Source: Selaginella tamariscina (taxonomy: Eukaryota; Streptophyta; Lycopodiopsida; Selaginellales; Selaginellaceae). Taken from it: a DNA stretch of 64,000 nt. The position numbers and the translations under genes were made by a program. This document shows positions 30,441 through 58,350 of this stretch, piece by piece. The notes beneath the pieces were generated by a model. The model was given only the letters and a program-made list of their open reading frames with translations. It made no database searches and was not told the origin of the DNA. The stretch lies in the NCBI GenBank assembly GCA_003024785.1, contig PUQB01000187.1:178501-242500 (forward strand). Reading direction: 5' to 3'. How positions within the stretch are numbered: the first letter of the stretch is position 1; each line of letters opens with the position of its first letter.

Positions 30441-30847
30441 ATCTTAGTAAAAGACCAATAAAGGTCTAAAGCATGACAAATCGAGTATTTGTGGGCTTGA
30501 GTTTCATCTCTAAGACTTCCAAGATATGTGGAAAACAAAATACAAGAATATTCTCTACACTAACTATATGATGCCTCCATGATACCTTGGAATATTCAAT
30601 TACCTAAACCCCTAAAATATAGGAACCCTAACCCTTTAAAGTCTAAATCTATTCAAGAAAAACTCAATATAAGTGACCTTGATAATGGTTAATATAATTA
30701 ACCTCTTGTGAAAAATTGAGAGCAGCTTGGCAAGGATAACAACATCTTCATTGGTTCTTTGCGAATTGAGTGCATGTGTTGTAGATATAACAATTCTAGT
30801 AGTGATTTGATGAGTATAAAGAGTGTATGTTATTATGATTTGGATGG
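30441..30847. other. Spacer between the gypsy LTR and giant element 1
   Basis: AT-rich with no gene seen. It forms the left flank of giant element 1. Confidence 0.5.
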
Positions 30848-30877
30848 TATATGCAAGTTGTAACTAAAATGGGCATG
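30848..30877 (+). repeat. Left terminal inverted repeat of giant element 1
   Basis: Contains ATGCAAGTTGTAACTAAA. The reverse complement of 46278-46307 differs at three positions. The same end starts copy 2 at about 51095. Confidence 0.75.
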
Positions 30878-31382
30878 GCTATAGTCCCATTTCCTAATAA
30901 TTAGCAATTTTAGCTATTTAATTAACATTTTCTAATATTAAAGGAATATTCTTTAGAATATATGTTTGAAAAAAGAATATTCTTTAGAATATTCTATTTT
31001 GTATTCTCCCTTTAATAAATTATAGCATTCATTGAACAAAAATTAATAACATTATAAAAGTAGAAGGTATTAAATTATATAATATATTGCCTAATATAAC
31101 AATTAAGGAAGAGCATAAGAGGTACATTATATAAATATTGATGTTGTTATTAAAATATTAATATTTAAATATAACATTATTAATTAAAAATTTGTAGTAG
31201 TAATAATATATATATAAAATCCTATAATAATATAGTCAATCTTCCATATCATTTTTTAAATTTATATAGTTAAGTATACAATTTGGTACTATTATTAAAG
31301 GTTTATAATATGAATATTAAATATATGATATTTTTATAATTTTGTAATTGCTTTAAGCTCAGAAAACATACATTCCCTTGCA

Positions 31383-34300
31383 GTTTTTAATCGTGACTTT
31401 ATCAACGCTTTTGACATCCACCCATATCGAATGGATTTACATTTATAAAACATGCTGGGTCTTTTTGATTGGGAGACATGTTTTCTCTAGGCATCCATTA
31501 TATCTTTCGCTCTCCTTCTCGTGTCGCCTTTTTTGGGTTGAACCATGCAACCTTAACAATACTATTTTTTGATTACTTCAGGTGTGTCGATAATTTGACC
31601 CATCCAAATAGGCTGATTATGATGACTCATCTGGAGTAATGAGAACCATCATTAGTTTTTGAAGATCCTTGCAGCAATCAAAGTATGCTTTAGGTTTTTG
31701 GTTCCTTTGTCCAACAAAGTGTGGGGTTTGCACTTCCACATCACTACTGCTTCTATGTCGTCTATGCTCAGTGATGTCATTTCAATCTCCTCTCGCCACC
31801 TTGTTTTAGGCCAGAAAGGGTGTTGCAATTCTGTACTTGTGACAGTAGGCCCTTCCAACTCTCGAACAACAGTCTCCCAATAGTTGACCACATGCTTATA
31901 TAGTTCTGAGTAACCAGTTGCCTTATCAGAATTCTTTGGCATCGATTTTTGAACCCATGCCACATATTTTTTGATGCCATCAATAATAACCTCTTGTTCC
32001 TTGAGCTGGGCACTCAATGGAATAGGGTCTGGTTGTCCTTCTGGGAGAAGTGGCTTTCCATCCTCTCCACTTTTGAAGAGCATTAAGCCCTCTTTCGGTA
32101 ACCACTCCTGCTCTGATGGCCGTAACTTGTACTGCATAATAGGTATACCATCTCGTATGGAGAAAAAGAATTGTAGCGGCACAAGGTGACCAACTAAAGA
32201 ATCACTCCCTTCTTTTATATACTCCTTGAGAAATTTTTTGAAGTCTGGCACCTCAGTCACAAGCAAAGCACAACTTTTTTTGGAGATGCAATTTTCAAAA
32301 AGATTCATCATATGCGGTAAGTAAGTGCACTTGTCCTTTTTGTAGAGTTGGAGACCTTGCTGAAGAACGCATCAATATCTTCATGAGTGTGACCAACCAT
32401 AAGGAAACTGAGCGTGATTGTTTCAAACACACCTTTGGCAACAAGCATTGACAAGTATGCTAGCACATATCTAGAAAATAAAAGTAAGTATGAGCTTGAG
32501 AAACCCTTAAGTAAAATGATTTACCTATTTTTGTTCTCGCCTGCACAATTATCCATCTGTAAAAGCAAATGACGAGGAAGCTTATTTGATGTTGAGGACA
32601 CATGTACACTATTTGAGCTAGATCCCTCCACTGAACCTGAACTCTCAACAGGGCCATCTGTTTTTGTGCAGGTGTGACAATGCCTCTCATATTCCCAAGT
32701 AGCCTCAAGTGCAGACGTGTTCATGAGAGCATTATGTAAAGGTTGAAGGTGTTGTTTCTTCACTTTGAGATCACTGATAGGACTTGTCTGTGAGTGGGCT
32801 TCAAGGTTTCTGAAACACATGGCTAACGACCCAATAGTGAAATTGGAGTCGCTAGACCAATGTGGAAGTGAAAAGTGTCCATATGACTCACAACCGTGTC
32901 CATGTGTTAGCACACCTGTCAATGAAATCGGAAGTTTCATGACATTTCCAAGGCACTTTGGTGTTGCAAAGAGCTTTGGAATGCTGGTCTTTGAATGATC
33001 CATCTTGTCATGGATCAAGCACAGGTACTCTGATGGGCGTGACACAGAAAGCATGCGGTGTGCATAGTACTGAGACCGGCAAGTTTGTTGTGCAATCATG
33101 TGGGCCTCCATCTTCCTTTGAATGGTAGTGATCTCCACCAAGGTTTTTGCACAAGCCTCTGCAGCCTTCAATGATGTACAAGTGTCACACTTAGAAAAGC
33201 TAGAGTGTTTTGCAATCTCCACATCCTTAAAATGAGTATTCCATATGTTGTTGAAGGTACCAGTGCAGATTGCTTGGAGCCCCATCAAACTGAGGCACTT
33301 GTTCACATGTTCACACAGTTTCAATTGAGTGTAGATTGAAGGTAAAACCTTGAGATTTTCCCTGACCCCTGCATTTGTGGTTCGGCATTTGTGAGGCATC
33401 CTGTCTGCATTTGCTTCCACAAAAGCCTTGAGTATCTCTATGGCTGCCATGATGTGAGAGCGGGTTTTGACCAAGCGAGTGTTCCCATGAACTGAGGTTC
33501 GCGCTCCATCTAGCCACTCATCCCTCCTACCAAGCTTTGAAGCAGATGGCCACCTTATTAAATACCATGGATGTACTCTGATAACCTGTGTCCGAGGCCA
33601 TTCCATCAATACACCCAGTTAGTGCAGCATATACAAACTCATGCCTTTGCTTTTGGGTGAGCATACGAAAGACATGTCTACATTGGGTAATTTCATTCCG
33701 GTCTGCCATCTGACAACACTTCTTCTTGCAACAGTCAATCGTGGAAATGCTCGTAACACTTTCGGAAGATGTAGGATCCATCTTTACCCTCTTGCTGAAA
33801 CTTGCAGGGGAAGATCTACAACCCATGAATCGCCTTTTTCTTACAATAGGACCAATGCAAGGAACCTCTTCAAATATGAGTTGTTCTTCCGGGTTGTTAT
33901 TATTGAAATCCAACCCAGAATATGTTGAACCATCTTGCCGTCTTAATTCAGATGTTCGCCACCTCACGAGGGATCCAGGATACAATGTGCCATTAGGTGA
34001 AACCTCTGTCACAACTACACCCACGAAGTCGGACCCTAGTTTCTCTTCTGACACTGCTTCCATTGGATTTATAGCTGTGATGATGCCTCTTCCGACTTCA
34101 ATCTCACGAAGAAAGAGAATCACCTCATCCATCACAGCAGGCAAGCCATCATCTGGTAAACTCGTGCTACTATTTGTTTGTGACTCTGCATATTCTGTGT
34201 CAGCCTTGACTTCATCCAAATTCCACAATACAGGAGAACCCTCCTCAAATTCCATTCCCAGAACCTCAACATGCTTGTAAATGGTGTTCACCCATACGTA

Positions 34301-34426
34301 CACACAAGATCCTTGGGCAATATTGTGACATGATGCATTATTATCTCGAACTTCCACAGTTCCAGTGCCAACTATCTCGTTGTTCCGAAGAAGACATACT
34401 TTATCTCCAGTATTAAACATATTGTC
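31383..34426 (-). pseudogene. DDE-transposase-like gene of giant element 1 (DUF7869-like), damaged
   Basis: Probably the transposase. The first coding exon starts after an acceptor at 34427, with ATG at 34418-34420. The N-terminal part (34420-33700) has two small beta-rich blocks (GDKVCLLRNNEIVGTGTVE; VGRGIITAIN). The middle has Cys pairs (SFSKCDTCTSLKAA). The core reads LLQMDNCAGENKNR, a splice (donor near 32526, acceptor near 32469), then YVLAYLSMLVAKGVFE and FLMVGHTHEDID. The DN...EN and GHTHEDID motifs match what I know of plant and animal proteins labelled DUF7869, which look like DDE nucleases. A C-terminal part follows at 32311-31652, with another exon-like piece (VKVAWFKP) at about 31383-31610. 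An internal deletion of about 40 bases near 33527 breaks this copy; copy 2 keeps that stretch. A frame change after GHTHEDID occurs in both copies. Confidence 0.7.
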
Positions 34427-35644
34427 CTGCACATAAATAATTGTATTATTTATGATATCTGTTTATGCAATATTTTAAGAAATCTGAATTACGGTTACTT
34501 AATAATATGCATATGCAATAATACATAATTATGTTTAGAGATAATATCTCATGTTTGATTAATACAACTGATGGGCGGGATTAATCCCGCCCACGAATCC
34601 CTCCGACGAGGAACGGTCGGCGGGATTAATCCCGCCGACTCAACCCCTTCGGAGAGAGTCGGCGGGATTAATCCCGCCTTGGACTCCCTCCGACAAGGAA
34701 GAGCCGGCGGGATTAATCCCGCCGCCTCTTCCTCCTCGGGGGAGTCCGGCGGGATTAATCCCGCCGACTCTCTCCGACGAGGAAGGGAGTCCGGCGGGAT
34801 TAATCCCGCCGCCGACTCAACCCCTTCGGAGAGAGTCGGCGGGATTAATCCCGCCTTGGACTCCCTCCGACAAGGAAGAGCCGGCGGGATTAATCCCGCC
34901 GCCTCTTCCTCCTCGGGGGGAGTCCGGCGGGATTAATCCCGCCGACTCTCTCCGACGAGGAGAGTCGGCGGGATTAATCCCGCCGACACCTCCTCGTCGG
35001 AGAGAGTCGGCGGGATTAATCCCGCCGGACTCCCCGAGGAGGAAGAGGCGGCGGGATTAATCCCGCCGGCTCTTCCTTGTCGGAGGGAGTCCAAGGCGGG
35101 ATTAATCCCGCCCACAATTCTTACGACGGGGAATGGGTGGCGGGATTAAACCCGCACATAACTCTCTCCAAAACTATGATTTCAAAGAGATCTCGGGATA
35201 AATCCTGTCCCCAAATCCTTAAAACAGGGATGTGGTGGCGAGATTAATCCCGCCACCCCTTCCCTGCCTCCTAAAATGGTTGGCGGGATTAATCCCGCCG
35301 ACAACTCTTTCTAATAAATTCTGGTAACTCTTCATCAGTTGAGAAGGTTATCGGCGGGATTAATCCCGCCACTCTTTTTCAGTGGCGGAGAAGCATTGCC
35401 CGAGAGATGGTGGCGGGATTAATCCCGCCACCTCTTCGAAGAGGCGAAAAAGAAATGGCCGGATTAATCCCGCCGCCCCGGTTAACCTAGAATATTAAGT
35501 TAAAAGGATATTTAAACGGGATAAATCCCTAACGGAATATATTATAATCCTAATGCATTCCTAAACCCCTAAATTGTAATTTTAAGAGAGAATGTAAGAG
35601 AGTGAATCTTTATAAGTATTTTTAAATTTGTTTATAATACTTAC
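34427..35644 (-). other. Probable first intron of the transposase gene, holding palindrome array 1
   Basis: A donor (TTTACAA|GTAAGT on minus) at 35645/35644 and an acceptor (ATGTGCAG|G) at 34427/34426 are both present, and both are conserved in copy 2 (55745 and 54695). The whole palindrome array would lie inside this intron. Confidence 0.5.
34573..35480. repeat. Palindrome array 1 of giant element 1
   Basis: About 16 perfect or near-perfect copies of the 18-bp palindrome GGCGGGATTAATCCCGCC plus a few degenerate ones, counted by eye, separated by roughly 20-30 bases. Spacers contain their own inverted repeats (for example GACTCTCTCCGACGAGGAG). Around 34853-35105 the array is also a larger inverted repeat with arms of about 110 bp. 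Apparent open frames reading repeated GGINPA or AGLIPP are by-products of the palindrome and not proteins. Confidence 0.95.
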
Positions 35645-35900
35645 TTGTAAACAGCACTGAAGGCGCCGTGCTTTCCTATAAAGAATAGCACCCAATTTAA
35701 TCTCGCTCCTGAGATGATCACTATGAAGAAAAAAGAAGATCTAAAGAGTGAAAAATACAGAAATGAAGAAACCCTTGCCGGAGAAAGAACCAGATCTGAA
35801 TTTGAGTGGGAAATTAAATGCATTTTCAAATTTACATGTCAGACCGACAATACATATGTCAGAAATTCAAATTTTTTAAAAAGAACAGAAAATAAAATTT
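35645..35900 (-). promoter_or_regulatory. Probable non-coding first exon of the transposase gene
   Basis: This block is well conserved between copies 1 and 2 while its surroundings drift. It ends in a good donor on the minus strand and has no ATG downstream of the conserved part, which suits a 5' untranslated exon. The promoter would lie to its right, in the central region. Confidence 0.4.
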
Positions 35901-36184
35901 AAGATGAGTTGACACAAATATCCGACACTCTGACATATATACTCTCCAGTTCCAATGAGTATTTTAAAATTGCATTTAATGTTATTCAAGTGATTCAAGC
36001 TGTTTAATATTACGAAATTTTAGACTATATTCTACATTCTTAGTATTCAAGTATATTTATATTATATATATATATAAATATATACTTATACAATAAATAA
36101 ATTGATATATTATTATGTATCATTTAAAATATATTCATAGTCTGTTTATTATTATTATTTTCTTAATTACTCGAGTATTTAGTT

Positions 36185-36720
36185 TTCATTTCCTAGTATC
36201 AATGGGATATTCTTTATATTTTATTAATATTTGAAGAATATTCTAATATTAAACCTGATTATCATAATTAAATTAGTCTTGTTCTTAATTATTGCAGTAA
36301 TTATTCTACATTTGTATATATTAATGGGATTTTCTCAATTAATTTGTTATTATTTCAAGAATATTCATGTGTTAAACCTTATTATCAATATTAAATTAAT
36401 ATATATATTAAATATATATATATATATTAATAATCATTATTATTAATGTATATTAAAATATGTTATATTGTATATTAATATCATTTCCTTAATTACTTGA
36501 GTAATTAATCTTCTTTATATTAATGGGATATTCTTTATTATTTTCTTATTATTCCAAGAATATTCCAATATTAAACATGATTATGATAATTAATTTAGTT
36601 AATTATTTGAGTACTTAATTTACATTTGTATATATTAATGGGATTTTCTCAATTAATTTCTTATTATTTCAAGAATATTTCAATGTTAAACCTTTTTATC
36701 AATATTAAATTAATATATAT
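36185..36720. repeat. Alternating tandem repeats in the central AT-rich region
   Basis: Four units starting AATGGGATATTCTTTAT or AATGGGATTTTCTCAAT (about 36200, 36327, 36523, 36637) alternate as A-B-A-B with a dimer of about 310-320 bp. The same arrangement is present in copy 2 at about 56323-56830. Confidence 0.8.
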
Positions 36721-37061
36721 TATTAAAACTATATATGGCTATATATTAGATAAAATCATATATTATTATGTATAATTTAAAATATGTTCATAGTGTGTTT
36801 ATTAATATTATTTTCTTAATTATTCGATGTTTGTTTTGCACACATATATAAACACAATCATAAATTTACACACGCATTACAAGAACTTACAAAAACACAT
36901 ATGCACACACATGCACAACCCTAAACCAAACTGAAGAAATATGTTGCTTCTTTATTGAAAACATCATGTTCAACGCATGTATGATATATGTACTCAATCT
37001 GTGTGTATGTAACACATTGAATTTACATGTGTAATATTTATATTAAGCTTGTTGGGAGCAA

Positions 37062-37176
37062 ACCCTAAACCCTAAACCCTAAACCCTGTGTATACATGTG
37101 TGTACAAAAATAATTTTTCAACACTCTCTCTTCACACCATGCATGATCCATCCTAAACCCTAAACCCTAAACCCTA
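37062..37176. repeat. Interstitial telomere-type CCCTAAA repeats
   Basis: Runs of three to four CCCTAAA units occur at about 37064-37087 and 37152-37175, and again at about 37598-37629. This is the plant telomere heptamer. In promoters a single unit is known as a telo-box, so a regulatory role is possible. Confidence 0.9.
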
Positions 37177-37249
37177 ATATGTAACACAATGAATTTACTC
37201 ATGTAATATGTATGTATGTCTGTGTGTATACACGTGTGTATGTATATAT

Positions 37250-37625
37250 GTGTACTCTGTATGTATATATGTGTACTTTCTGTCTTCTCTCATACATACA
37301 CACCATGCATGATCCATGTTAATATGTACTGTGTCTCTTCTCTCAAACATACACACCATGCATGATCTATAATATGTACTCGGTCTCTAATATTATGTAC
37401 TAATATGTATGTATGTCTGTGTGTATAATACACACCATGCATGATCCATAATATGTACTGTCTCTCTTCTCTCATATACTATGTATGTATATCTGTGTAT
37501 AATATGTGTGTGTACTAATATATGCAATGTGTACAAAAATAATTTTTCAACACTCTCTCTTCTCTCATACATACACACCATGCATGATCCATCCTAAATC
37601 CAAAACCCTAAACCCTAAACCCTAA
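37250..37625. repeat. Tandem repeats around ACACCATGCATGATCCAT
   Basis: Five or so units of roughly 60-130 bases, each with ACACCATGCATGATC, CTCTTCTCTC and TAATATGTACT, lie between the telomere-type runs. The same motif recurs in copy 2 at about 57590-57965. Confidence 0.8.
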
Positions 37626-37944
37626 ACCCATGTAATATGTATGTATGTCTGTGTGTATACACGTGTGTATGTATATATTATGTGTATTAATATATGCAAT
37701 GTGTATGTATGTATTGATACACATGAAACTTTAACACTCTCATGGACACACACATGTTAAATCCCTGCATGATTTATATTTTTGGGGTGTATGTGATACA
37801 CCCACGCACACGCACGCGCTAATAATATAATGAAAGAATATTCGTTTAGGGCGAATCTATATTTTATTCTTTTTAGGGTTTAAGTATATTCTCAGAAGGA
37901 ATATTCTATTAGGGTTAATATATATATTTAATTCCTTTAGGGTT

Positions 37945-38008
37945 TAGGTATATTCTTAGGGTTTCAAGAGGCGGCGGCTGTGAAATCGGCGGGCGGCTGT
38001 GCACACAG
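37945..38008 (+). promoter_or_regulatory. Probable 5' untranslated exon of the ParB-methyltransferase gene
   Basis: A GC-rich patch after TTAGGGTTTCAAG ends in a donor (CACACAG|GTGAG) at 38008. Copy 2 has the equivalent at about 58287-58350. The matching acceptor (TTTTGCAG) lies at 41440, giving an intron of about 3.4 kb that contains palindrome array 2. Confidence 0.4.
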
Positions 38009-38016
38009 GTGAGATC

Positions 38017-38051
<35 letters not shown>

Positions 38052-38228
38052 ATATGTATAGGAGTGTGCGTATAATTTTTTATTAGTTTTATCTCTCGCA
38101 CACACACGCACACTCCTGTGTATGTATATGTGTGTGTGGGTGTGTGTTTGTTTATCTGTATGATTTTATTTGTTTCGCTCACACACGCATACACACGATA
38201 TACATATAACATATATATATATATACAT

Positions 38229-38502
38229 AGATTAACAAAATTGATTTAGATTGTGACCTAGACCACTAAAAAAACCATGATGGCTTAGATCAAAAAAAAT
38301 TTAACTCAATATATATAATGATTTTTGATGATCTTCAATTATATAAAATACATAAATTAAATCTTATATTCTTTAATATTATGAATATATAGTATTAATT
38401 TATTAATTATATATATTAATAATATATATATTTAACCCTAAATTTTGGTTTTACTATTCATGAATAGTGAAACCATGGTTTAAAATCAATTTGACAATTG
38501 TG
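38229..38502. mobile_element. MITE-like insertion of about 275 bp
   Basis: Nearly the same sequence is present at 57251-57532 in opposite orientation and at a different place in giant element 2. It has AACAAAATTGATTT at one end and a related ATCAATTTGACAATT at the other, and no coding capacity. Confidence 0.75.
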
Positions 38503-38617
38503 GTATATATACCTATATACATATATACATACATATATTATGTGTACTAGTATCTATAAAATTTTTTTTATTGATCTATCTCTCCCACACACATGCACAC
38601 TGCTTTACACACACACA

Positions 38618-38658
<41 letters not shown>

Positions 38659-38739
38659 ATCAATGCATATTAAGAAATAGTATACAACACTAGTTTATAT
38701 ATATGCTTATATATTCATATGGGTTATATATATATACAC

Positions 38740-39013
38740 ATATATATATGTGTGTGTTTATCTGTATAATTTTATTTATTTATTAGTTTTATCTCTCGCA
38801 CACACACGCACACTCCTGTGTATATATATGTGTGTGTGTGTGTTTGTTTATCTATATGATTTTATTTGTTTCGCTCACACACACATACACACAATATACA
38901 TATACACATATATATATACCTATATACATATATACATACATATATTATGTGTACCAGTATCTATATAATTTTTTTTATTGATCTATCTCTCCCACACACC
39001 ACGCACACTGCTT

Positions 39014-39049
<36 letters not shown>

Positions 39050-39480
39050 CAATGCATATTAACAAATAGTATAACAACACTAGTTTTATATATATGCTTA
39101 TATATTCACAGACTCTCTATATCTATATATACACATATATATGTGTGTGTTTATCTGTATAATTTTATTTATTTATTAGTTTTATCTTTCGCACACACAT
39201 CACACTCCTGTGTATATATATGTGTGTGTGTGTGTTTGTTTATCTGTATGATTTTATTTGTTTCGCTCACACGCATACACACGATATACATATACACACA
39301 TATATATACCTATTGTACACATATATTATGTGTACCAGTACTGTATAATTTTATTTATTTATCTATCTCTTGCACACACACGTACACTCCTATACAAACA
39401 TACATACATACATACATATAATATATATATATATACACACACACATATATAATATGTGTGTGTTTTTATCTGTATAATTT
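38740..39480. repeat. Tandem repeats rich in CA, TA and TG runs
   Basis: Blocks beginning TGTGTGTTTATCTGTATAAT and containing TTTATCTCTCGCACACAC recur at about 38010-38180, 38745-38990 and 39140-39370, mixed with (CA)n and (TA)n runs (about 38610-38660, 39017-39048). Confidence 0.85.
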
Positions 39481-39527
39481 TTTTATTTATTAATTTTATC
39501 TCTTGCACACATGCTAAACCCCTCGAG

Positions 39528-41135
39528 CGGCGGGATTAATCCCGCCGCTATAGGTTTATGGCCTCGGCGGCGGGATTAATCCCGCCACTATATGGTTGGG
39601 CCATGGCGGCGGGATTAATCCCGCCGCCGAGGCCCTTCACGCAGGCCATGGGCGGCGGGATTAATCCTGCCGCTCTAGGACAAAACCGAAGAGCGGCGGA
39701 TTAATCCCGCCGCCCATGGCCTGCGTGAGGGGCCTCAGCGGCGGGATTAATCTCGCCGCTCACCCATGCCCTGTGCGGAATGCGACGGGATTTATCTCGC
39801 CGGCAATGGCTTGTGTGAAGGCCCTAATGGCCGGGATTAATCCCGGCGGATTCCGCGCAGGGCATTTACAGGGGATGGGCGGCGGGATTAATCCTGCCGC
39901 TCATGAGGCTAACCGAAGAGCTTGCATGAAAGATCCTGCACGGAAGGCTAACCGAAGAGCCTGCATGACATGTCATGCGCGTAAGGCGGCGGGATTAATC
40001 CCGCCGCCCAGGGAATTCACGCAGGACATGAACGGCGGGATTAATCCGCCCCACGCTCATGCCCTTCGCGGAGGGCGGCGGGATTAATCCCGCCGCTCAG
40101 GCACTTCCGCAGGATATAAGCGGCGGGATTAATCCCGCCCCCACCCATCCCTGTTCAAAATGCCGCAGCCAATATATATGTGTGAGCGCATGATTTACGA
40201 GAGGGCGGCGGGATTAGTCCTCCGAACCTTCATTACCGGTGGCGGGATTAATCCCGCCACCCTTCTTTTTTCCTCCATTGGTATGTTGAATCAATCCCGA
40301 CTAACTCTGTCTGAGACGGAGAAGGTTTACAAAATACCAATGGAGGGAACTGAGAAGGGTGGTGGGATTAATTTCACCATCCCTTACATGGTGGGCGGGA
40401 TTAATCCCGCCGCGTACGCATGCCCTGCGCGGAATCGGGCGGGATTTATCCCGCCGCCATTGGCCTGCCTGAAGGGCCTAGGCGGCGGGATTAATCCCGC
40501 AAGATTTCGCACAGGGCATTGGCGTTCGGCGGGATTAATCCCGCCGACTAAGGCCCGAGTGAAGGGCCTGGGAGGCGGGATTAATCCCGCGACGCCAATT
40601 CCCTGCGCGGAATCGGGCGGGATTTATCCCGCCGCCATTGGCCTGCCTGAAGTGCCTAGGCGGCGGGATTAATCCCGCCCGATTCCGCGCAGGGAATTGG
40701 CGTCCGGCGGGATTAATCCCGCCGCATAGGGACCGAGTGAAGGCCCTGGGCGGCGGGATTAATCCCGCCGAGTCTTCAATGCCTGTTGGAGGAATGAATC
40801 CCGCCACCCTTCCTTTTTTCTCCATTGGTGAGTCGGACCAATCCCAAACGTTTCTGTCTGAGACGTAGAAGGTTTTCAACATACCAATGGAGAGAATTGG
40901 GAAGGGTGGGGAAATTCATTTAACCATCCTTACATGGTGGGCGAGATTAATCCCGCCCCTTTCTGGAGTCACTGAAGGGGTGTGAGAAATAAATCCTGCC
41001 CAGTTCTCTCTGAGACCGAGAAGGGTGGCAAGATTAATTCCGCACTCCCGTTCAAGGCCTCCAGAAAGGTGGCGAGATTAATCCCGCCCACTCTTTCAGG
41101 AGGCATTGAAGGGGTGGCGAGATTAATCCCGCCGC
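39528..41135. repeat. Palindrome array 2 of giant element 1
   Basis: Around 30 copies of GGCGGGATTAATCCCGCC and variants, counted by eye, more degenerate than in array 1. Spacers such as CCTTCACGCAGGCCATGG reappear as their reverse complement around the next palindrome (39625-39740), giving nested stems. The array lies between the putative 5' exon and the coding exons of the ParB-methyltransferase gene. Confidence 0.93.
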
Positions 41136-41251
41136 ACCTTCCATGTGAATATATATGTGTATTAGTATATATAAGTTGCATATCTCATTTTATTTACTTT
41201 TATCATCTTATCATAATATTTCGAGTAAAAGTAGGCTAGGAATCTATGTAA

Positions 41252-41338
41252 AACTGTCCAGAGCTCACATTTGTGGTGGTTCTAAAACGAAATGTTATCT
41301 TTCTTTTGCACTAACACAAATGTGAGCTTCGGACAGTT
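41252..41338. other. Near-perfect hairpin with 24-nt arms
   Basis: The left arm (41252-41275) and right arm (41315-41338) pair at 22 of 24 positions around a 39-nt loop, with GCTCACATTTGTG opposite CACAAATGTGAGC. It is absent from the equivalent place in copy 2, where homology ends. It could be a small RNA precursor or the ends of a tiny inverted-repeat insertion. Confidence 0.5.
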
Positions 41339-41479
41339 AATTACGTCTACTTCTCTCTGTGTATTATTTTTGTATATTCGGGTTTATACAAGTGTGTGTG
41401 CGTTTTTATATATTTGTATTCATAGTGTATTATTTTGCAGAAGGACGATTTGATCAAACAAGGAGATCGAGTCATTAGT

Positions 41480-44400
41480 ATGGAGTCGTCGTCAAATTCT
41501 GGGTAAGAATTAAAATAAAATCTGTTATACTCGGATACTTGAACTAATCATTTTTGTATTCAGATGTGGAATTGAGGTGACATTAAAGACAAGAGCAGGA
41601 GAAGAGATGGGCAGGGGGATTCTGGAATCAACTTGGCCATATTTTAAGATAAATGGGAAGCGCATTGGAGCAACCATGGCTGCTGTCAAATTAACCTCTG
41701 TCACATCTCATGGACAAGCAAAACAATGGAAAGTAGATTCGCTAGTCAAGCACCCGAAAGCAGGCTGCGAACCCAGATTGATGATCGACACATATGCCTT
41801 GTTCCATCCAATGTCACGTTCTCGGATCCAGAGGTCGTCAGTTACAACATTAATTTCGGGTGGTTTTGTCGACTTGTGGATAATGACGTTCACGTGTTCA
41901 CTAATGATGTTGACCTTGGAGTTCTTCTTCAACTCAACGAAAGCCCATCTATGGAGGGGATCCATCTGGATGTCTACTTCGAAAATCTTCAGACTCATCG
42001 AGTAGGTGTATTGTCAGGAGATATTGCTTCACAATACAGAAAATCAGCAAGTGAAGCAATCTTCCCTCTTCACATTGAAGAAGAACACAGCGACATCATA
42101 ATGGAGATTGAGAGGGTGGCTCGGTCTCAGGTTCTCTACAGATCACGTTCAATTTGCTTAGGAGCTTTGGGAGCTGGAAGAGTGTACCGAGAACACTAGA
42201 ACAGCTGCAGTCGGGGATCACACATGTTGATTCGGATCGCAAAAGAAAATCATCAATCGTTTTGTCAGCTGCACCTGTGGCATCTCATGCTGCAATAAGT
42301 CACAAGGAAATGATGTTGGATGATAAGATTTATCCTTGTAGGGTTAAATATTGCAGCGTCAACCCAAACTTCAATTACAGGCCACTCAACCAGGAACGTG
42401 TAGCTGAGCTCATGGAGAAGATGAAGGACGACAATTCTTATACCGTTCCACATAATGCTGTTTTGTGTCCATACTATGAAAGAAGGAAGGGCGCTGACAA
42501 AGTCTGGATCACAACACCAGAACAACTCATGAAGATTCAGACGGAGAATAAAAAATCTATCAAGTACTACATCATTAGTGGCCAGCACACAATAACGGCA
42601 GCCCAACGACTTCTCGATGAACACAACAAAGGAACGATGGCAACAAAACTTTCCGAGCATACCCGTGAGAAGCTGACAAAAAGATCGGCGTTTTTAGCTA
42701 AGCCGAATCTCACAATCGAGCAGTACCATAAGTTATCGGCGGAATGGGACGCTGCCGACACCAACCACTACAACAGCAAAATATGGGAGAAGTTTAAACA
42801 CACGCGAGCCGTGTGGGAATCTCTTCAGCGACCACAAAGAGCTACCGCAGGGAATACACAATCTGCGGAATACCGGGTAAGCAAATTGTTTGGGCGGGAT
42901 TTATCTCGCCGGTATATTAATCTGTCTTTTTCCTCAGAGAGTTGAAGAAATTGCAGCAGTTGATTTTGCCCAGGTGGGCGGGAAGGAAACATCCTTTCTG
43001 ATGATGTTGATTTCTTGCCCCGAAGATAGGATCTTTGCCAAATGGTTGGGGATTATGGAATCCTTTTCAAAAGGAACACTGAAGAAGAAGCAGACAAGTG
43101 AAGGGGAGCCCTCAGAAAAGTCTGCAAAGAAACCCAGTAAGACGCCGAAGGCTAAGTCTGTTCAATCTACAAAGGATGTAGACAACGATTTCAAGCTCAC
43201 ATGGTTGAAGCCTTTAAATGGAACAACGATGGAGGAGATGGAAGTCTTGGCTGATTTGGTGATCGATGGCAAACTACAAATTAATAACAGCAGCCCAACC
43301 TCTCCTTTTCATCTCAAGGCAATGGAGTTGAAGACGGTCAGGCATTTCAAGGAGTGGTTGGGAATACACTGCCACAAACTGGGTTGGACCTCGACTTCAA
43401 CATATGAAGAGGTCAGCAAATATTTGCATGTGACGAACGATGATATGCTTGTCGAATGGGTGAACCAATCGGAAGATCTAGGCAAGAATCTATTGCACGC
43501 CAACGCCAAAAAGGAGAACATTGGGATGACGCCTTCTCTTATGGCAGTCCTTCAGCAGCGGAGAACCGAATTGAACCTTATAAAGGAGGATGCTACGAAT
43601 CACGACAAGCCCTACAGATGTTTGTTGTTAGATTCGGAGACTTTATGGGGTAACATCACTGCTTGTAGGAAACCGTTTCAATTGTTCGTGATGGATCGGC
43701 GGGTGTCAAAAAATCTTTCGACAGATAGGGCACTAGAGGATCTGGTGGAGAAACTTAGCCGTGCAAGCATATACATAGAAGGTATTTATTATTGAATTCA
43801 TGCTTGCGCTCTTCACTGATACCTACTTTTTCAGGTATTTATTTCTTGATTCTTGCTCATGTCACCGATACTTTTGCCTTCGCCTTCGCCAAGAAGAATA
43901 GACATCGTTGGACAGGATTTTATATGAACGATGCTAATCCCAAGTGCATTGATACCGTTGTTCACTTGGTTGTTAGGAATGCGCCAAACAATTTCAAGCT
44001 TCCAAATGACTGGCCAGGCATCTGTTTGCACTCCAACGGCCCTGAACCTCCATCCGATACACCGATAGGTATGAGTGACGTATTCGGCAATGTACGTTAT
44101 CCAAACATTACAAGTCAAGCGGCACGGAGCATCGTCAACTTGATCAGGGGTCCTCAGTGATGCGTGGGTTTTTGACTACTGCACTAGGGGGTCCGTCTTG
44201 AAGGAGTGTTACCTTCGGCATACATGTGTGTTTGCCGTTGAAAAGGATAAGACCATGGTTGAGGACCTGAACAAGTGGATAGATTGGGTCTCAACTGAGT
44301 ACCCCAACGATCCATAAAGGCGTATTTGAGAAAGTTCCCTCCAGATAAGTGCGATAGCTCTGAAGGTGAATCTGGTTCAATCTCGGAGTCTGAGAACGAA

Positions 44401-44577
44401 CTTCAATCAGATATTAGACCGGAAGTTATCTCGAGGAGTACAGAACATTCGCACACTCCAGGACCCATGGAAACATCAATAGAAGATGCAGAAGATCTTG
44501 AACCATCTCACAAGCGGCTTAGACCTTCTTCGCCTCACTCAGAAGGTAATAGCGAAGAAGAATTGATAATGAATTGA
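41480..44577 (+). CDS. ParB-like domain plus methyltransferase-like protein of giant element 1
   Basis: ATG at 41480 opens MESSSNSG, then an intron (41503 to about 41562). An unrecognised N-terminal domain follows (about 41563-42150), with one or two frame changes (near 41800 and 42160). A ParB/sulfiredoxin-like domain spans about 42230-42870, with RPLNQERVAELMEKM and YYIISGQHTITAAQRL in place of ParB's GHHR-type motif. A 61-bp intron (42877-42937) follows, then a Lys/Ser-rich linker and a long domain to 43780, a short intron, and an exon from about 43836. The C-terminal part has AWVFDYCTRGSVLKEC followed by VFAVEKDK, resembling the AdoMet-binding DPFxGSG...E motif of beta-class amino-methyltransferases, which comes after the catalytic motif as here. 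No DPPY is seen; FQLFVMDRRV sits roughly where it would be expected. An acidic Ser-rich tail ends at TAG. Frame changes near 44150 and 44320 make this copy doubtful as a working gene. Confidence 0.65.
42893..42910. repeat. Lone palindrome copy inside a 61-bp intron
   Basis: GGCGGGATTTATCTCGCC differs from the array palindrome at two positions and fills nearly a third of the intron 42877-42937. Copy 3 lacks the whole segment (about 63250-63270 on minus). Confidence 0.8.
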
Positions 44578-44849
44578 TAGAGTGATGAATAGTTGTAAAT
44601 GAGTGTAACATAAGGCATTTTTGTATATTTCTTTTATATTTGTACAGAAAATAAATTCTCAAGGATTAATGAAGCTTTTAGTTCAAACATGGGTCACACA
44701 TTAACAAGGTAAATAATATACCTTGATAATTTTAAGGTCAGCTAATTATCATTTTGCAGATGTAATGAAATAATTGAGAACATGGATTTTCAGCATTGCC
44801 ATGAGGTAAGAGAGGGGTTTGGCGACAATTTCTTGTGCCACATGTCAGA

Positions 44850-46016
44850 ATGACAGAGTTCATGCAGGAAATGGATAATAATGCAGCTCAAAACATCGTT
44901 ACCATGGGGGCCACTTCATCATCATTTTTATTGGCTTCAGTTCCGAAATCAATTTCTTCAGCGCATGCAATATCTGAATCTTGTAAGGATGATGTACAAT
45001 TAAATGATGAAGGGATAGGCAACGAGATAGTGGCAACGGATAAATGTGAAAGGGAGCAAACAAGTGATTTGCAAAGTATTCAAGAGGCAACGCTATCTCA
45101 TGTTACTCATGGCCATATTGTGTTGTTGGATGTCAATGGTGTTCTGCTTCATCGACAAAGGCCCCAGGATAGAAAAACAGAAATCAAACAAGGAGATTTC
45201 ATTCCTTGTCATGGTAAATTTCGATATGATATTATTTTTCGTCCAGGGTTGGATCGTCTCTTTCAAAAGCTTAAGGAGATGGGTGCGCTTGTGGGGATTT
45301 GGTCATGCATGCAGATTCATAACTTAACACCGCTGTTGAATTTACTTAAGAAACATTGTAGTGTTGCAGAAGAGGTGATTCGTAAAGATTGGATTTTTGA
45401 CCAGCGAATGTGTCATAAACCTCTCGAATTTCACAATATAAGAAAGGAAAGCAAGCCATACTTCTTCAAGAATGAAAGAATAATTGGGACTCATGGGGAG
45501 ATCAGTCGCTTAAGGATAACGAAGAATGCACATATCTTAGTAGTAGACGACTCTCCTCAGAAGGCTATGCTCAACCAAAACATTGCTTGTATTCATCCAA
45601 TCACTTTCGATCCATATTCTGATACCGATATCATGGATGAGCTAGTGAACTACTTGGATACGTGCCTCAGAAAGAAGAATCTCGAAAATTTTTGTGAGCA
45701 GTATCCACCGTATCATACATTTCCTGAAGCTTTTCTTTCTCGTGATATTGAATTTTATAAAATGAAGGATAGCAACCGGGCGCTTTATAATATTATTCTT
45801 AAGGAACGTCAGTTTTTAGATGAGCCTTTATGCAGACCTTCTCTTATCACATCTTATGTATTAACAAGGATGGCAACTCCCAATTGCATTCGTGAGAGTG
45901 TTAAGTGGTGGCAACAACATCAAGATATTGACCAAAATGATTTGATTAATCCGGAGAGTGATGATTTAGACAAAATGAAAAGATTTCTTTGTATGATAGA
46001 AAGAAAGTATTTATAA
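44850..46016 (+). CDS. FCP1/NIF-like HAD phosphatase gene of giant element 1
   Basis: An uninterrupted frame of 388 codons from ATG 44850 to TAA 46016. The HAD fold motifs are in order: motif I HIVLLDVNGVLL (about residues 90-101), FRPGLDRLFQKLKEMG and VGIWSC as motif II, a basic region, and HILVVDDSPQKAM as motif IV. FCP1-type enzymes use DxDGT in motif I; here the second Asp is Asn (DVNGV), so catalysis may be weak or lost. Possible upstream exons lie at about 44648-44700 and 44760-44804. It follows the ParB-methyltransferase gene by about 270 bp on the same strand and is carried in copy 3 too, so it belongs to the element. Confidence 0.8.
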   Translation: MTEFMQEMDNNAAQNIVTMGATSSSFLLASVPKSISSAHAISESCKDDVQLNDEGIGNEIVATDKCEREQTSDLQSIQEATLSHVTHGHIVLLDVNGVLLHRQRPQDRKTEIKQGDFIPCHGKFRYDIIFRPGLDRLFQKLKEMGALVGIWSCMQIHNLTPLLNLLKKHCSVAEEVIRKDWIFDQRMCHKPLEFHNIRKESKPYFFKNERIIGTHGEISRLRITKNAHILVVDDSPQKAMLNQNIACIHPITFDPYSDTDIMDELVNYLDTCLRKKNLENFCEQYPPYHTFPEAFLSRDIEFYKMKDSNRALYNIILKERQFLDEPLCRPSLITSYVLTRMATPNCIRESVKWWQQHQDIDQNDLINPESDDLDKMKRFLCMIERKYL

Positions 46017-46277
46017 AAAATTAACATGTTGATAAGAAAATGATTTCATTTGTAATTATGTTTGATAGTATTTCTTCATTATTGTAAACTATTTTTAGAA
46101 TAATATGAATATTCTAAGATATTTTAGGAATATTCCTTACTAAGTAAGGTTATTGAAGGATTAATTAATTAATTAATTAATATTTAAGGCTTAATTACAT
46201 ATTAATTAAATGATTAATTAATAATTAAAACTTAAGTATTAATTAGTAATTTATTTTATATTCCCATTTTCACGTAT

Positions 46278-46307
46278 CATGCCCACTTTAGTTACAACGT
46301 GCATGTA
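46278..46307 (-). repeat. Right terminal inverted repeat of giant element 1
   Basis: The reverse complement holds ATGCACGTTGTAACTAAA, matching the left end. The same end is found in copy 3 at about 59951-59980. Confidence 0.75.
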
Positions 46308-46406
46308 TGGGATCATTCCAATGCTAGCCTTGACAAACATAATAGCAAACAAGGGAGTAGCCCGCAAGGGATGTAACTAGAGCGGTGTTGTGGCAGCAAG
46401 GGTTTC

Positions 46407-51094: not shown

Positions 51095-51639
51095 ATATGC
51101 AAGTTGTAACTAAAATGGGCATGGCTATAGTCCCATTTCTTAATAATTAACAATTTTAGCTATTTAATTAGCATTTTCTAATATTAAAGGAATATTCTTT
51201 AGAATATATATTTAAAAACAAAATATTCTTTAGAATATTCTATTTGTATTCAACCCTTTAATAATTATAGCATTCATTGAACAAAAATTAATAACATTAT
51301 AAAAGTAGAAAGTATTAAATTATATATATTGCCTAATATAAACAATTAAGGAAGAGCATAAGAGGTACATTATATAAATAATGATGTTGTTATTAAAATA
51401 TTAATATTTAAATGTAACATTATTAATTAAAAATTTGTAGTATAATAATATATATATAATATACAAATCCTATAATAATATATTCAATCTTCCATATCGT
51501 TTTTAAATTTATATAGTTAAGTAAACAATTTGGTACTATTATTAAAGAGTTTATAATAATTATGAATATTAAATATATGATATTTTATAATTTTGTAATT
51601 GCTTTAAGCTTCAGAAAACATACATTCCCTTGCTGTTTT

Positions 51640-54600
51640 GTTAATTGTGACTTTATCAACGCTCTTGACATCCACCCATATCGAATGGATTAACATTTAT
51701 AAAACATGCTGGGTCTTTTTGATTGGGAGACCATGTTTTCTCTAGGCATCCATTATATCTTTCACTCTCCTTTTCGTGTCGCCTTTTTTGTGGTTTGAAC
51801 CATGCAACCTTAACAATACTATTTTTTGTGATTACTTCAGGTGTGTCGATAATTTGACCCATCCAAAATAGGCTGATTACTATGAGCATATGGAATAATG
51901 AGAACCATCATTAGTTTTTGAAGATCCTGGCAGCAATCAAAGTATGCTTTAGGTTTTTTGGTTCCTTTGTCCAACAAAGTGTGGGGTTTGCACTTCCACA
52001 TCACTACTGGCTTCTATGTCGTCTGTGCTCAGTGATGTCATTCAATCTCCTCTCGCCACCTTGTTTTAGGCCAAAAAGGGTGTTGCAAGTTTGTACTTGT
52101 GATAGTAGGCCCTTCCAACTCTCGAACAACAGTCTCCCAATAGTCAACCACATGCTTATATAGTTCTGAGTAACCAATTGCCTTATCAGAATTCTTTGGC
52201 ATCGATTTTTGAAACCCATGCAACATATTTTTTTATGCCATCAATAATAACCTCTTGTTCCGAGCTGGGCACTCAATGGAATAGGGTCTGGTTGTCCTTC
52301 TGGGAGAAGTGGCTTTCCATTCTCTCCACTTTTGAAGAGCATTAACCCCTCTTTTGGTAACCACTCATGCTTTGATGGCCATAATGTACTACATATAGGT
52401 ATACCATCTCGTGTAGAGAAAAGAATTGTAGCGGCACAAGGTGACCAACTAAAGAATCACTCCCCTCTTTTATATACTCCTTGAGAATTTTTTTGAAGTC
52501 TGGCACCTCAGTCACAAGCAAAGCACAACTTTTTTGGAGATGCAGTTTTCAAAAAGATTCATTTCATATGTGATAAGGTAAGTGCACTTGTCCTTTTTGT
52601 AGAGTTGGAGACCTTGTTGAAGAACGCATCAATATCTTCATGAGTGTGACCAACCATAAGAAAACTAAGCGTGATTGTTTTTAAACACACCTTTTGGCAA
52701 CAAGCATTGACAAGTATACTAACACATACCTAGAAAATAAAAGTAAGTATGAGCTGAGAAACCCTTAAGTAAAATGATTTACCTATTTTTGTTCTCGCCT
52801 GCACAATTATCCATCTGTAAAAGCAAATGACGAGGAAGCTTATTTGATGTTGAGGACACATGTACACTAAGAACTCTCAACAGGGCCATCTGTTTTTTGT
52901 GCAGGTTGCTGACAATGCCTCTCATATTCCCAAGTAGCCTCAAGTGCAGACGTGTTCATGAGAGCATTATGTAAAGGTTGAAGGTGTTGTTTCTTCACTT
53001 TGAGATCACTGATAGGACTTGTCTGTGAGTGGGCTTCAAGGTTTCTGAAACACATGGCCAACGACCCAATAGTGAAATTGGAGTCGCTAGACCAATGTGG
53101 AAGTGAAAAGTGTCCATATGACTCACAACCGTGTCCATGTGTTAGCACACCTGTCAATGAAATCGGAAGTTTCATGACATTTCCAAGGCACTTTGGTGTT
53201 GCAACGAGCTTTGGAATGCTGGTCTTTGAATGATCCATCTTGTCATGGATCAAGCACAGGTACTCTGATGGGCGTGACACAGAAAGCATGCGGTGTGCAT
53301 AGTACTGAGACCGGCAAGTTTGTTGTGCAATCATGTGGGCCTCCATCTTCTTTTGAATGGCAGTGATCTCCACCAAGGTTTTTGCACAAGCCTCTGCAGC
53401 CTTCAATGATGTACAAGTGTCACACTTGGAAAAGCTAGAGTGTTTTGCAATCTCCACATCCTTAAAATGAGTATTCCATATGTTGTTGAAGGTACCAGTG
53501 CAGATTGCTTGCAGCCCCATCAAACTGAGGCACTTGTTCACATGTTCACACAGCTTCAATTGAGTGTAGATTGAAGGCAAAACCTTGAGATTTTCCCTGA
53601 CCCCTGCATTTGTGGTTCGGCATTTGTGAGGCATCCTGTCTGCATTTGCTTCCACAAAAGCCTTGAGTATCTCTATGGCTGCCATAATGTGAGAGCGGGT
53701 TTTGACCAAGCCAGTGTTCCCATGTACTGAGGTTCGCGCTCCATCTAGCCACTCATCCCTCCGACGGTAGAACGTGGTCTTTGGGATCCCGTATATACTG
53801 TACCAAGCTTTGAAGCAGATGGCCACCTTATTAAATACCATGGATGTACTCTGATAACCTGTGTCCGAGGCCATTCCATCAATACACCCAGTTAGTGCAG
53901 CATATACAAACTCATGCCTTTGCTTTTGGGTGAGCGTACGAAAGACATGTCTACATTGGGTAATTTCATTCCGGTCTGCCATCTGACAACACTTCTTTTA
54001 GCAGTCAATCGTGGAAATGCTCGTAACACTTTCGGAAGATGTAGGATCCATCTTCACCCTCTTGCTGAAACTTGCAGGGGAAGATCTGCAACCCATGAAT
54101 CGCCTTTTTCTTACAATAGGACCAATGCAAGGAACCTCTTCAAATATGAGTTGTTCTTCCGGGTTGTTATTATTGAAATCCAACCCAGAATATGTTGAAC
54201 CATCTTGCCGTCTTAATTCAGATGTTCGCCACCTCACGAGGGATCCAGGATGCAAAGTGCCATTAGGTGAAACCTCTGTCACAACTACACCCACGAAGTC
54301 GGACCCTAGTTTCTCTTCTGACACTGCTTCCATTGGATTTATAGCTGTGATGATGCCTCTCCCAACCTCAATCTCATGAAGAAAGAGAATCACCTCATCC
54401 ATCACAGCAGGCAAGCCATCATCTGGAAAACTCGTGCTACTGTTTGTTTGTGACTCTGCATATTCTGTGTCAGCCTTGACTTCATCCAAATTCCACAATA
54501 CAGGAGAACCCTCCTCAAATTCCATTCCGGAACCTCAACATGCTTGAAAATGGTGTTCACCCATACGTACACACAAGATCCTTGGGCAATATTGTGACAT

Positions 54601-54695
54601 GATGCATTATCATCTCGAACTTCCACAGTTCCAGTGCCAACTATCTCGTTGTTCCGAAGAAGACATACTTTATCTCCAGTATTATACATATTGTC
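51640..54695 (-). pseudogene. Transposase-like gene of copy 2
   Basis: Homologue of 31383-34426. It keeps the stretch deleted in copy 1 (FKAWYSIYGIPKTTFYRRR, near 53790) and an open frame of 371 codons at 52867-53982. It carries other lesions: a one-base loss near 54527, a short deletion near 53998, and a deletion near 52870 before the DN...EN motif. Because the lesions differ, both copies descend from an intact gene and were damaged separately. Confidence 0.7.
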
Positions 54696-54839
54696 CTGCA
54701 CATAAATAATTGTGTTATTTATGATATCTGTTTATGCAATATTTTAAGAAATCATAACTACGGTTGCTTAATAATATGCATGTGCAATAATACATAATTA
54801 TGTAAAAGATAATATCTCATGCTTTATTAATACAACTGA

Positions 54840-55577
54840 TGGGCGGGATTAATCCCGCCACGACTCCCTCCGACGAGGAACGTGGCGGGATTAATCCCGC
54901 CGCGACTCCTCGGAGAGAGTCGGCGGGATTAATCCCGCCGACTCCCGTGGAGAGGCGGCGGGATTAATCCCGCCGACTCCCTCGGAGGAGTCGGCGGGAT
55001 TAATCCCGCCGCACTCTCCCTCGGGAGGCGGCGGGATTAATCCCGCCGGACTCTCCCTCGAGAGAGTCGGCGGGATTAATCCCGCCGATCCCTCTGCGAG
55101 GAGATCGGCGGGATTAATCCCGCCGCATCTTCCGTCGGAAAGAGGCGGGATTAATCCCGCCCCAATCCTCGACGGGAAGAGGGCGGGATTAATCCCGCCC
55201 ACAACTCTGACGACGGGGAATAAGCGGCGGGATTAATCCCGCCCACAACTCTCTCCGAAACTATGATTTCAAAGAGATTCGGGATGAATCTGCCCACAAA
55301 TATTTAAAACAGGAAGTGGTGGCGAGATTAATCCCGCCACCCCTTCTCTGCCTCCTAAAATGGTTGGCGAGATTAATCCCGGACAACTCTTTCTAATAAA
55401 TTCAAGTAACTCATTATCAGTTGAGAGAGTTATCGGCGGGATTAATCCGCCGCTCTTTTTAAGAGGCGGAGAAGCATTGCCCGAACTAATTCTCATACTA
55501 TGAAGAGATGGTGGCGGGATTAATCCCGCCACCTCTTCAAAGAGGCAAAAAAAATGGCCGGATTAATCCCGCCGCCC
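54840..55577. repeat. Palindrome array 1 of copy 2
   Basis: Eleven regularly spaced GGCGGGATTAATCCCGCC units (about 37-41 base period) at 54841-55240, then five degenerate ones. The 18-bp unit is unchanged from copy 1, but the spacers differ. Most spacers are themselves short hairpins, such as GATCCCTCTGCGAGGAGATC. Confidence 0.95.
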
Positions 55578-55744
55578 CGGCTAACCGAGAATATTAAGTT
55601 AAAAGTATATTTAAACGGGATAAATCCCTAACAGAATATATTGTAATCCTAATGCATTCCTAAATCCCTAAATTCTAAAATTTAAGAGAGAATGTAAGAG
55701 AGTGAATCTTTATAAATATATTTAAATTTGTTTATAATACTTAC

Positions 55745-56000
55745 TTGTAAACAGCACTGAAGGCGCCGTGCTTTCCTATAAACAATAGCGCACCCAATTT
55801 AATGTCGCTCCTGAGCTGATCACTAAGAAGAAAAAAGAAAATCTGAAGAGTAAAAATAAAGAAATGAAGAAACCCTTGCCGGAGAAAGAACCAGATCTGA
55901 ATTTGAGTGGGAAATTAAATGCATTTTCAAATTTACATGTCAGACGATAATACTTATGTCAGAAATTCAAATTTTTGAAATAACAGAAAAGAAAATTTAA
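55745..56000 (-). promoter_or_regulatory. Probable 5' untranslated exon of the copy 2 transposase gene
   Basis: Counterpart of 35645-35900 with the same donor. Confidence 0.4.
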
Positions 56001-56155
56001 GATGAGTTGAAACAAATAACCGACAGTCTGACATATATACTCTCCAATTCCAATGAGTTTTTAAAATTGCATTTAATGTCATTCAAGTGCTTCAAGCTGT
56101 TTAATATTACGAAATTTTTTAATTATTCTACATTCTTAATATTCAAGTATATATT

Positions 56156-56157
56156 AA

Positions 56158-56203
<46 letters not shown>
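56156..56203. repeat. (TA)n microsatellite
   Basis: About 23 TA units, much longer than at the equivalent place in copy 1 (about 36060-36080). Confidence 0.95.
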
Positions 56204-56207
<4 letters not shown>

Positions 56208-57250: not shown

Positions 57251-57532
57251 TTAACCACCCAATTGTCAAAATTGATTTTAAACCATGGTTTCACTATTCA
57301 TGAATAGTAAAACACAAATTTAGGGTTAAATATATATATTATTAATATATATAATTAATAATTAATACTATATATTCATAATATTAAAGAATATAAGATT
57401 TAATTTATGTATTTTATATAATTGAAGATCATCAAAAATCATTATATATATTGAGTTAAATTTTTTTGATCTAAGCCATCATGGTTTTTTTTAGTGGTCT
57501 AGGTCACAGTCTAAATCAATTTTTGTTAATCT
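57251..57532. mobile_element. MITE-like insertion, inverted relative to 38229-38502
   Basis: Reverse-complement match over about 275 bp to the insertion in copy 1, at a different position relative to the host element. Confidence 0.75.
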
Positions 57533-57699
57533 ATGTTTGTTAACACTCTATCTCTCTTCTCATACATACACAGTGTCACCATGCATAATCCCACCATGCA
57601 TGATCCATAATATGTACTGATGTTTACAATTTATGTAATATGTAAATGTATATCTGTGTATAACACTCACTCATTTCATATATATAACACCATGCATGA

Positions 57700-57721
57700 T
57701 CCATCCTAACCCTAAACCCTA
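57700..57721. repeat. Short telomere-type repeat
   Basis: About two CCCTAAA units (AACCCTAAACCCT), fewer than in copy 1. Confidence 0.8.
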
Positions 57722-58286: not shown

Positions 58287-58350
58287 GGTTTCAAGAAGTA
58301 AGGCGGCAGAGGCGGCGGATGTGAAATCTGCTTCTCTCTCTCACACACAA
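58287..58350 (+). promoter_or_regulatory. Probable 5' untranslated exon of the copy 2 ParB-methyltransferase gene
   Basis: Counterpart of 37945-38008 with donor CACACAA|GTAAGA. Its coding exons are not in the window. Confidence 0.35.

What the first reader, a model, noticed from the sequence alone, without database searches (positions are those of the whole stretch)
30848..46307. Candidate undescribed giant DNA transposon carrying a ParB-methyltransferase gene, an HAD phosphatase gene and palindrome arrays
Seen: a 15.5-kb unit with 30-bp imperfect inverted ends (27/30), present as one full and two partial copies, always with the same cargo. Known: DDE-type transposases act on terminal inverted repeats, and proteins with a GHTHEDID-like motif (DUF7869) look like such nucleases. 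Inference: the element moves through the minus-strand protein and carries accessory genes that could mark or partition its own DNA. I know of no named plant superfamily with this content.
Basis: partly seen in the sequence, partly recalled or inferred. Interest (0 to 1): 0.9.

Follow-up and report, generated by a model that had tools for sequence, protein, structure and literature searches.

The report
Giant jumping gene with cargo
A 15.5-kb cut-and-paste jumping element, whose ends and cargo genes occur more than a thousand times in one genome, carries two extra genes and arrays of an 18-letter palindrome; it is real and strikingly successful, and closely resembles giant elements recently described in algae.

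Summary
The element is window 30851-46304 (15,454 bp), with 27-bp inverted ends (25/27 identical) and a 4-bp target duplication (GTAT). The 300.7-Mb assembly holds 1,384 left-end, 1,567 right-end, 1,615 ParB-like and 1,838 phosphatase-like tags at <=1 mismatch. 17 of 29 end pairs carry a 4-bp duplication (1-nt slip allowed) against 36 of 812 mispaired controls. One nested copy shows its empty site. The minus-strand gene is a DUF7869 transposase (E 9e-47); a homologue models with an RNase-H-like DDE/DDD core. So it is a mobile DNA transposon with shared cargo. "Undescribed superfamily" is not supported: 4-bp duplication, size, bryophyte relatives and opposite-strand ParB-methyltransferase-type gene match Sola-1, and such a 21.5-kb Sola1 is published for Ectocarpus (PMC12477816, passages). 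Homology to Sola could not be tested. What looks new: palindrome arrays, a NIF/HAD-like gene with a changed catalytic motif (open in 1 of 9 young copies read), and a methyltransferase part lacking motif IV and seemingly relaxed (dN/dS 0.79 against 0.13-0.24). Verdict: new variant of a known kind.

The parts
30847..30850 (.). left target-site duplication GTAT
30851..30877 (+). left terminal inverted repeat (27 bp)
30851..46304 (.). element copy A, full length, 15,454 bp
31334..34420 (-). DUF7869 transposase gene; 54-nt intron at 32471-32524; about 1,020 aa when intact in other copies, frame-shifted here (including 38 nt missing near 33,517); low end approximate
34574..35474 (.). palindrome array I (18-mer GGCGGGATTAATCCCGCC, 16 exact sites), directly upstream of the transposase gene
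35475..39528 (.). AT-rich central spacer with internal repeats
39529..41133 (.). palindrome array II (12 exact sites), directly upstream of the ParB-like gene
41480..44577 (+). cargo gene 1: ParB-like N-terminal/middle part and degenerate amino-methyltransferase-like C-terminal part, about 916 aa or more, introns inferred by eye; frame-shifted in this copy
44850..46016 (+). cargo gene 2: NIF/HAD phosphatase-like protein, open in this copy, motif I DVNG
46278..46304 (-). right terminal inverted repeat (27 bp)
46305..46308 (.). right target-site duplication GTAT
51097..59887 (.). partial copy B: left end to the point matching A 41256, older (mean 2.4% from the other copies in the left 3.5 kb)
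59947..64000 (.). partial copy C: right end, inverted, older and decayed, runs off the window

Best explanation
It is a giant cut-and-paste DNA transposon, most probably of the Sola (Sola-1-like) superfamily. Shown by sequence: the DUF7869 transposase gene, the TIRs, insertion with a 4-bp duplication, precise insertion into a known empty site, and cargo that travels with the ends. Inferred: the transposase binds the 27-bp TIRs and cuts and joins through a DDD triad in an RNase-H fold, with 4-bp staggered joining. Inferred more weakly: the ParB-like protein binds the 18-bp palindromes in the two arrays, which sit at the 5' sides of the two divergent transcription units, and so keeps the promoters of the transposase and of its own unit open or regulated. 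Its methyltransferase part looks eroded, so the protein probably acts by binding more than by marking DNA. The NIF/HAD-like protein is an accessory factor that may bind more than dephosphorylate, and may be dispensable in many copies.
Against: No Sola sequence was at hand, so homology to Sola is untested. 12 of 29 end pairs show no TSD. VIA-align Z stays under 8, a level the tool warns can mean only a common arrangement; its two top rows have rmsd above 20 A, and Argonaute (PIWI, also RNase-H-like) rows appear too; Foldseek gave no match at E <= 0.001. ParB and methyltransferase identities have no profile support, and the ParB fragment did not fold with confidence (pLDDT 43). Neither cargo protein found a homologue (these searches need shared 5-residue words). 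No single copy was read in which the whole ParB-like gene is open. The HAD frame is open over 403 aa only in copy A of 9 young copies read in full. About half of ParB tags (45 of 91) have no listed right end at 3.0-4.5 kb. Palindrome binding is pure inference. The transposase tag was never counted genome-wide (tool busy).
Confidence: 0.72

Rival explanations
1. A founding member of a separate DUF7869 superfamily of DNA transposons, not Sola, that shares 4-bp TSDs by convergence.
For: The only Pfam match of the spliced transposase at E <= 1 is DUF7869; of 129 relatives (120 listed), those with a species name are from mosses, a liverwort and bivalves.
Against: Sola is described with the same TSD length, a DDD transposase, sizes above 15 kb and a moss host (PMC10741241 passages), and a Sola1 with the same opposite-strand cargo type is published (PMC12477816 passages).
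Confidence: 0.2
2. Segmental duplication or satellite-like amplification of a host locus rather than transposition.
For: High copy number and near identity of the copies read; copies A and C share 27 bp of right flank.
Against: Different flanks at the other ends read, 4-bp TSDs above the mispaired control, an empty site, ends in both orientations over many contigs.
Confidence: 0.02
3. The cargo protein is an active ParB-methyltransferase that methylates the element's own DNA (as proposed for algal relatives).
For: By-eye resemblance of the C-terminal part to the motif I region of permuted amino-methyltransferases (recalled pattern); published interpretation for Ectocarpus (passages).
Against: No [DNS]PP[YFWH] motif in the 916-residue reading; dN/dS of the C-terminal exon 0.79 against 0.24 and 0.13 for the ParB and middle parts (Fisher P 0.002 for ParB plus middle against this exon, 0.018 for the transposase against it, one pairwise comparison each); no profile hit.
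Confidence: 0.12

Closest known systems
Sola1-1_Ec32, Ectocarpus (PMC12477816, passages read)
   Same: Giant (21.5 kb) DNA transposon; ParB-like plus DNA methyltransferase protein (1,104 aa) on the strand opposite the transposase.
   Different: Host and size differ; our cargo protein lacks methyltransferase motif IV and has no profile hit. The passages read mention neither palindrome arrays nor a NIF/HAD-like gene for Sola1-1. Its Sola-1 table row reads 1 / 1989 / 2 / 0.17% (column heads not seen, so copy numbers are not compared). Sequence homology not tested.
Sola superfamily in plants (Physcomitrella Sola1; PMC10741241 and PMC9033089, passages read)
   Same: 4-bp TSD, DDD transposase, TIR within the reported 11-1124 bp, some over 15 kb, moss host.
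   Different: Most are said to be 2-9 kb.
DUF7869 proteins of Physcomitrium, Ceratodon, Riccia and bivalves
   Same: Same transposase family; bryophyte rows 32-38% identical over 53-95% of the region searched.
   Different: Their elements and cargo could not be inspected.
KDZ and EnSpm giant elements (PMC12477816, PMC12730594, passages read)
   Same: Giant size, accessory genes, sometimes epigenetic enzymes.
   Different: TSD 8 bp (Zisupton) or 3 bp (EnSpm); no Pfam match to their transposases here.

Membership tests
Sola superfamily | 4-bp target-site duplication | tested here: met
   17 of 29 pairs with 1-nt slip, 10 of 29 exact; 36 and 13 of 812 mispaired; 5-, 6- and 8-bp repeats at the exact borders 0 of 29; empty site
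Sola superfamily | DDD transposase | tested here: inconclusive
   D169, D327, D369 conserved at RNase-H positions, but D172, E366 or D367 are also near-invariant; roles not assayed
Sola superfamily | terminal inverted repeats of 11 bp or more | tested here: met
   27 bp, 25/27
Sola superfamily | sequence homology to Sola transposases | not testable with these tools
   no Sola sequence found at hand; the paper I recall as founding (msp013) is not held
KDZ (Zisupton) | 8-bp TSD | tested here: not met
   8-bp repeats 0 of 29 at the exact borders
EnSpm/CACTA | 3-bp TSD and CAC...GTG ends | tested here: not met
   ends are ATGCA...TGCAT; TSD 4 bp
ParB-methyltransferase accessory proteins | ParB-like domain by profile | tested here: inconclusive
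   no ParB hit in Pfam, NCBIfam, PHROGs or PDB sequences; only a motif-like stretch; single-sequence model unusable
ParB-methyltransferase accessory proteins | amino-methyltransferase motif IV [DNS]PP[YFW] | tested here: not met
   absent in the 916-aa reading; that this motif is defining is recalled
ParB-methyltransferase accessory proteins | gene opposite in strand to the transposase | tested here: met
   transposase minus, cargo plus
NIF/FCP-SCP-type HAD phosphatases | NIF domain | tested here: met
   PF03031, E 3.2e-12, residues 105-290; NCBIfam dullard-like only 0.0062, below its cut-off
NIF/FCP-SCP-type HAD phosphatases | catalytic motif I DxDx(T/V) | tested here: not met
   reads DVNGVL in window copy A and in L011; that DxDx is canonical is recalled

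The most novel reading that the evidence does not exclude
The element carries its own palindrome array and a ParB-like protein that loads on it, a transposon-encoded 'parS-ParB' system in a plant nucleus that coats the element and protects it from silencing or regulates transposition, with the methyltransferase part reduced to a non-catalytic scaffold. This would explain the unusual copy number.
Probability: 0.15. Interest if true: 0.85.

Novelty: new variant of a known kind. Interest (0 to 1): 0.5.

Why it matters
It adds a probably plant-like host to the few giant DNA transposons reported to carry ParB-methyltransferase-type accessory proteins, with many recent copies. This makes it a workable system for asking what such cargo does, and whether binding or DNA marking is what is selected. 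It also links the Pfam family DUF7869, which has no named function, to a mobile element with defined ends and target duplication.

Tried and rejected
Segmental duplication was rejected. A viral origin was considered: a scan of viral contigs with the transposase alignment found 196 pattern matches, none a relative by tblastn, and the window has no Rfam hit at gathering score. PDB sequence search with the transposase profile gave nothing. Foldseek alone gave no match at E <= 0.001; the MazF-, Tudor- and chromo-barrel-like rows concern the C-terminal domain (residues about 598-694) and were not followed. A single-sequence AlphaFold model of the ParB stretch was too poor to use. Homologue searches for both cargo proteins returned nothing. 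Host identity was left open: the one test planned (a streptophyte marker family) did not complete. The transposase-tag count did not complete either.
Full report
Borders and copies. Self-comparison shows a second left part (51097-59887) and an inverted right part (59947 to the window end). In the host assembly (300.7 Mb, 1,391 contigs) a 29-mer of the left end occurs 1,384 times and a 25-mer of the right end 1,567 times at <=1 mismatch, with 0 in the reversed-pattern controls. Tags in the ParB-like gene and in the phosphatase-like gene occur 1,615 and 1,838 times, controls 0. If 1,384 copies had the typical length of about 14.7 kb they would fill some 20 Mb, about 7% of the assembly; this is an upper-type estimate by inference, because many copies are partial.

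Completeness of copies. The tool lists only the first places, and those listed had zero mismatches. On contigs 1-128, 26 of 63 listed left ends have a listed right end in the same orientation at 2-20 kb, 23 of them at 12.5-16.5 kb; 21 of these 23 contain the exact ParB tag, and 21 of the 22 given to a second script contain the HAD tag. Forty of 63 left ends have a listed ParB tag at 8-14 kb, and 46 of 91 ParB tags have a listed right end at 3.0-4.5 kb, so many copies are not shown to be complete. These are lower bounds, as ends with a mismatch are not in the lists.

Mobility. Flanks differ between the copies read. Of 29 end pairs, 10 have an exact 4-bp repeat at the border and 17 do so with a 1-nt slip; 812 mispaired combinations give 13 and 36. 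Twelve pairs show none; they may be mispaired, rearranged or mutated. The 29 are copy A, L011, 20 pairs, and 7 of the 14 right-end windows. Dropped: L013 and L014 (no readable left end), L021, L022 and L023 (no readable right end), L028 (damaged right end) and L015 (right end with an insertion, not read by the pattern). One copy (L026/L049) sits inside the transposase gene of another copy; joining its flanks and dropping one ATAT gives the uninterrupted sequence with 1 substitution in 116 bases. Twenty-seven bases of the right flank of A recur at the outer edge of copy C, which I cannot explain.

Age. The left 3.5 kb of 20 copies (19 of the 20 fetched loci, plus A) differ by 0-12 substitutions from their majority sequence; in 18 of 20 the deletion events equal or outnumber the substitutions. 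The loci were chosen from the 40 best hits, so they are biased to youth. Copy B is on average 2.4% away. Frame-shifts in single copies may be decay or assembly error; I could not tell which.

Cargo. The first cargo gene reads as a protein of about 916 residues when three copies are combined; no single copy was read open over the whole gene. A ParB-like stretch and a methyltransferase-like C-terminal stretch are visible by eye, but no library supports either, no homologue was found, and motif IV is missing. Between young copies and the old copies B and C, dN/dS is 0.21 and 0.28 for the two transposase exons, 0.24 and 0.13 for the ParB and following parts, 0.79 for the C-terminal methyltransferase-like exon, and 0.40 for the HAD gene. 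This is one pairwise comparison per stretch against a decayed copy, with gapped codons and stop codons left out (0-2 stops each). Fisher tests: ParB plus middle against the C-terminal exon P 0.002, transposase against that exon P 0.018, transposase against HAD P 0.17 (counts for HAD rounded). The second cargo gene matches Pfam NIF (3.2e-12), with motif I reading DVNG; it has no homologue in the database search. Its 403-aa frame is open only in A among nine young copies covering the whole gene (A, which is also L032; L011; L029-L031; L033-L036), and copy C is decayed.

Palindromes. The perfect 18-bp palindrome GGCGGGATTAATCCCGCC occurs 28 times exactly in copy A, in two arrays of 16 and 12 sites placed just upstream of the two divergent genes, and 15 times in copy B; none lies outside the element copies in the window. 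The rest of the genome was not searched for it.

Comparison with the literature. PMC10741241 (passages) gives Sola as DDD transposase, 4-bp TSD, some over 15 kb, in Physcomitrella. PMC9033089 (passages) lists Physcomitrella Sola1. PMC12477816 (passages and two parts of the reference list) describes a 21.5-kb Sola1 in Ectocarpus with a ParB-methyltransferase on the opposite strand and cites green- and red-algal cases (its refs Iyer 2011, not looked up, and Petroll 2025, not held). PMC12730594 (passages) supplied the TSD lengths of Zisupton and EnSpm. PMC12704722 (passages) surveys ParB-fold fusions, including N6/N4 methyltransferases in phages. A full-text search for DUF7869 found no paper. Searches for ParB with moss transposons, for giant transposons in plants and for ParB, methyltransferase and Sola showed no land-plant case in their listings, of which I saw titles and starts of abstracts; this covers only the held open-access library.

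Conclusion. A real, recently active giant transposon that is most likely Sola-1-like, with shared cargo of a kind already seen in algae and with palindrome arrays, a NIF/HAD-like gene and an apparently eroding methyltransferase that I have not seen described. The host was not identified; the nearest named relatives of the transposase are bryophytes. The most useful open question, directly testable, is whether the ParB-like protein binds the element's own palindromes.

Noticed in passing
46305-46331 and 59920-59946: Copies A and C share 27 bp of right flank, including the GTAT duplication, although C is several percent diverged; C also has a repeated stretch just outside its end.
   Followed up: partly
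L011 1318-8457: Internal-deletion derivative: sequence jumps from A 34799 to 43207, keeping both ends and an intact transposase reading.
   Followed up: partly
L026/L049: One copy inserted into the transposase gene of another copy.
   Followed up: yes
[not shown]
   Followed up: no
42893-42910: A near-copy of the 18-bp palindrome (<=3 mismatches) lies inside an intron of the ParB-like gene.
   Followed up: no
16651-17947 and 18052-19406: Tandem duplications of about 330 bp and 660 bp units left of the element.
   Followed up: no
12969-13433: Minus-strand aspartyl-protease-like fragment, probably of a retrotransposon (weak Pfam Asp_protease_2 and gag-asp_proteas, below cut-off).
   Followed up: no
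27978-29539, 48359-51084: Another repeat family (about 69-79% identical pieces, inverted and direct) lies on both sides of the element.
   Followed up: no
G000 C80:563732 and 563981; C191:284251 and 284534: Pairs of same-orientation ends about 250-280 bp apart, suggesting tandem end duplications.
   Followed up: no
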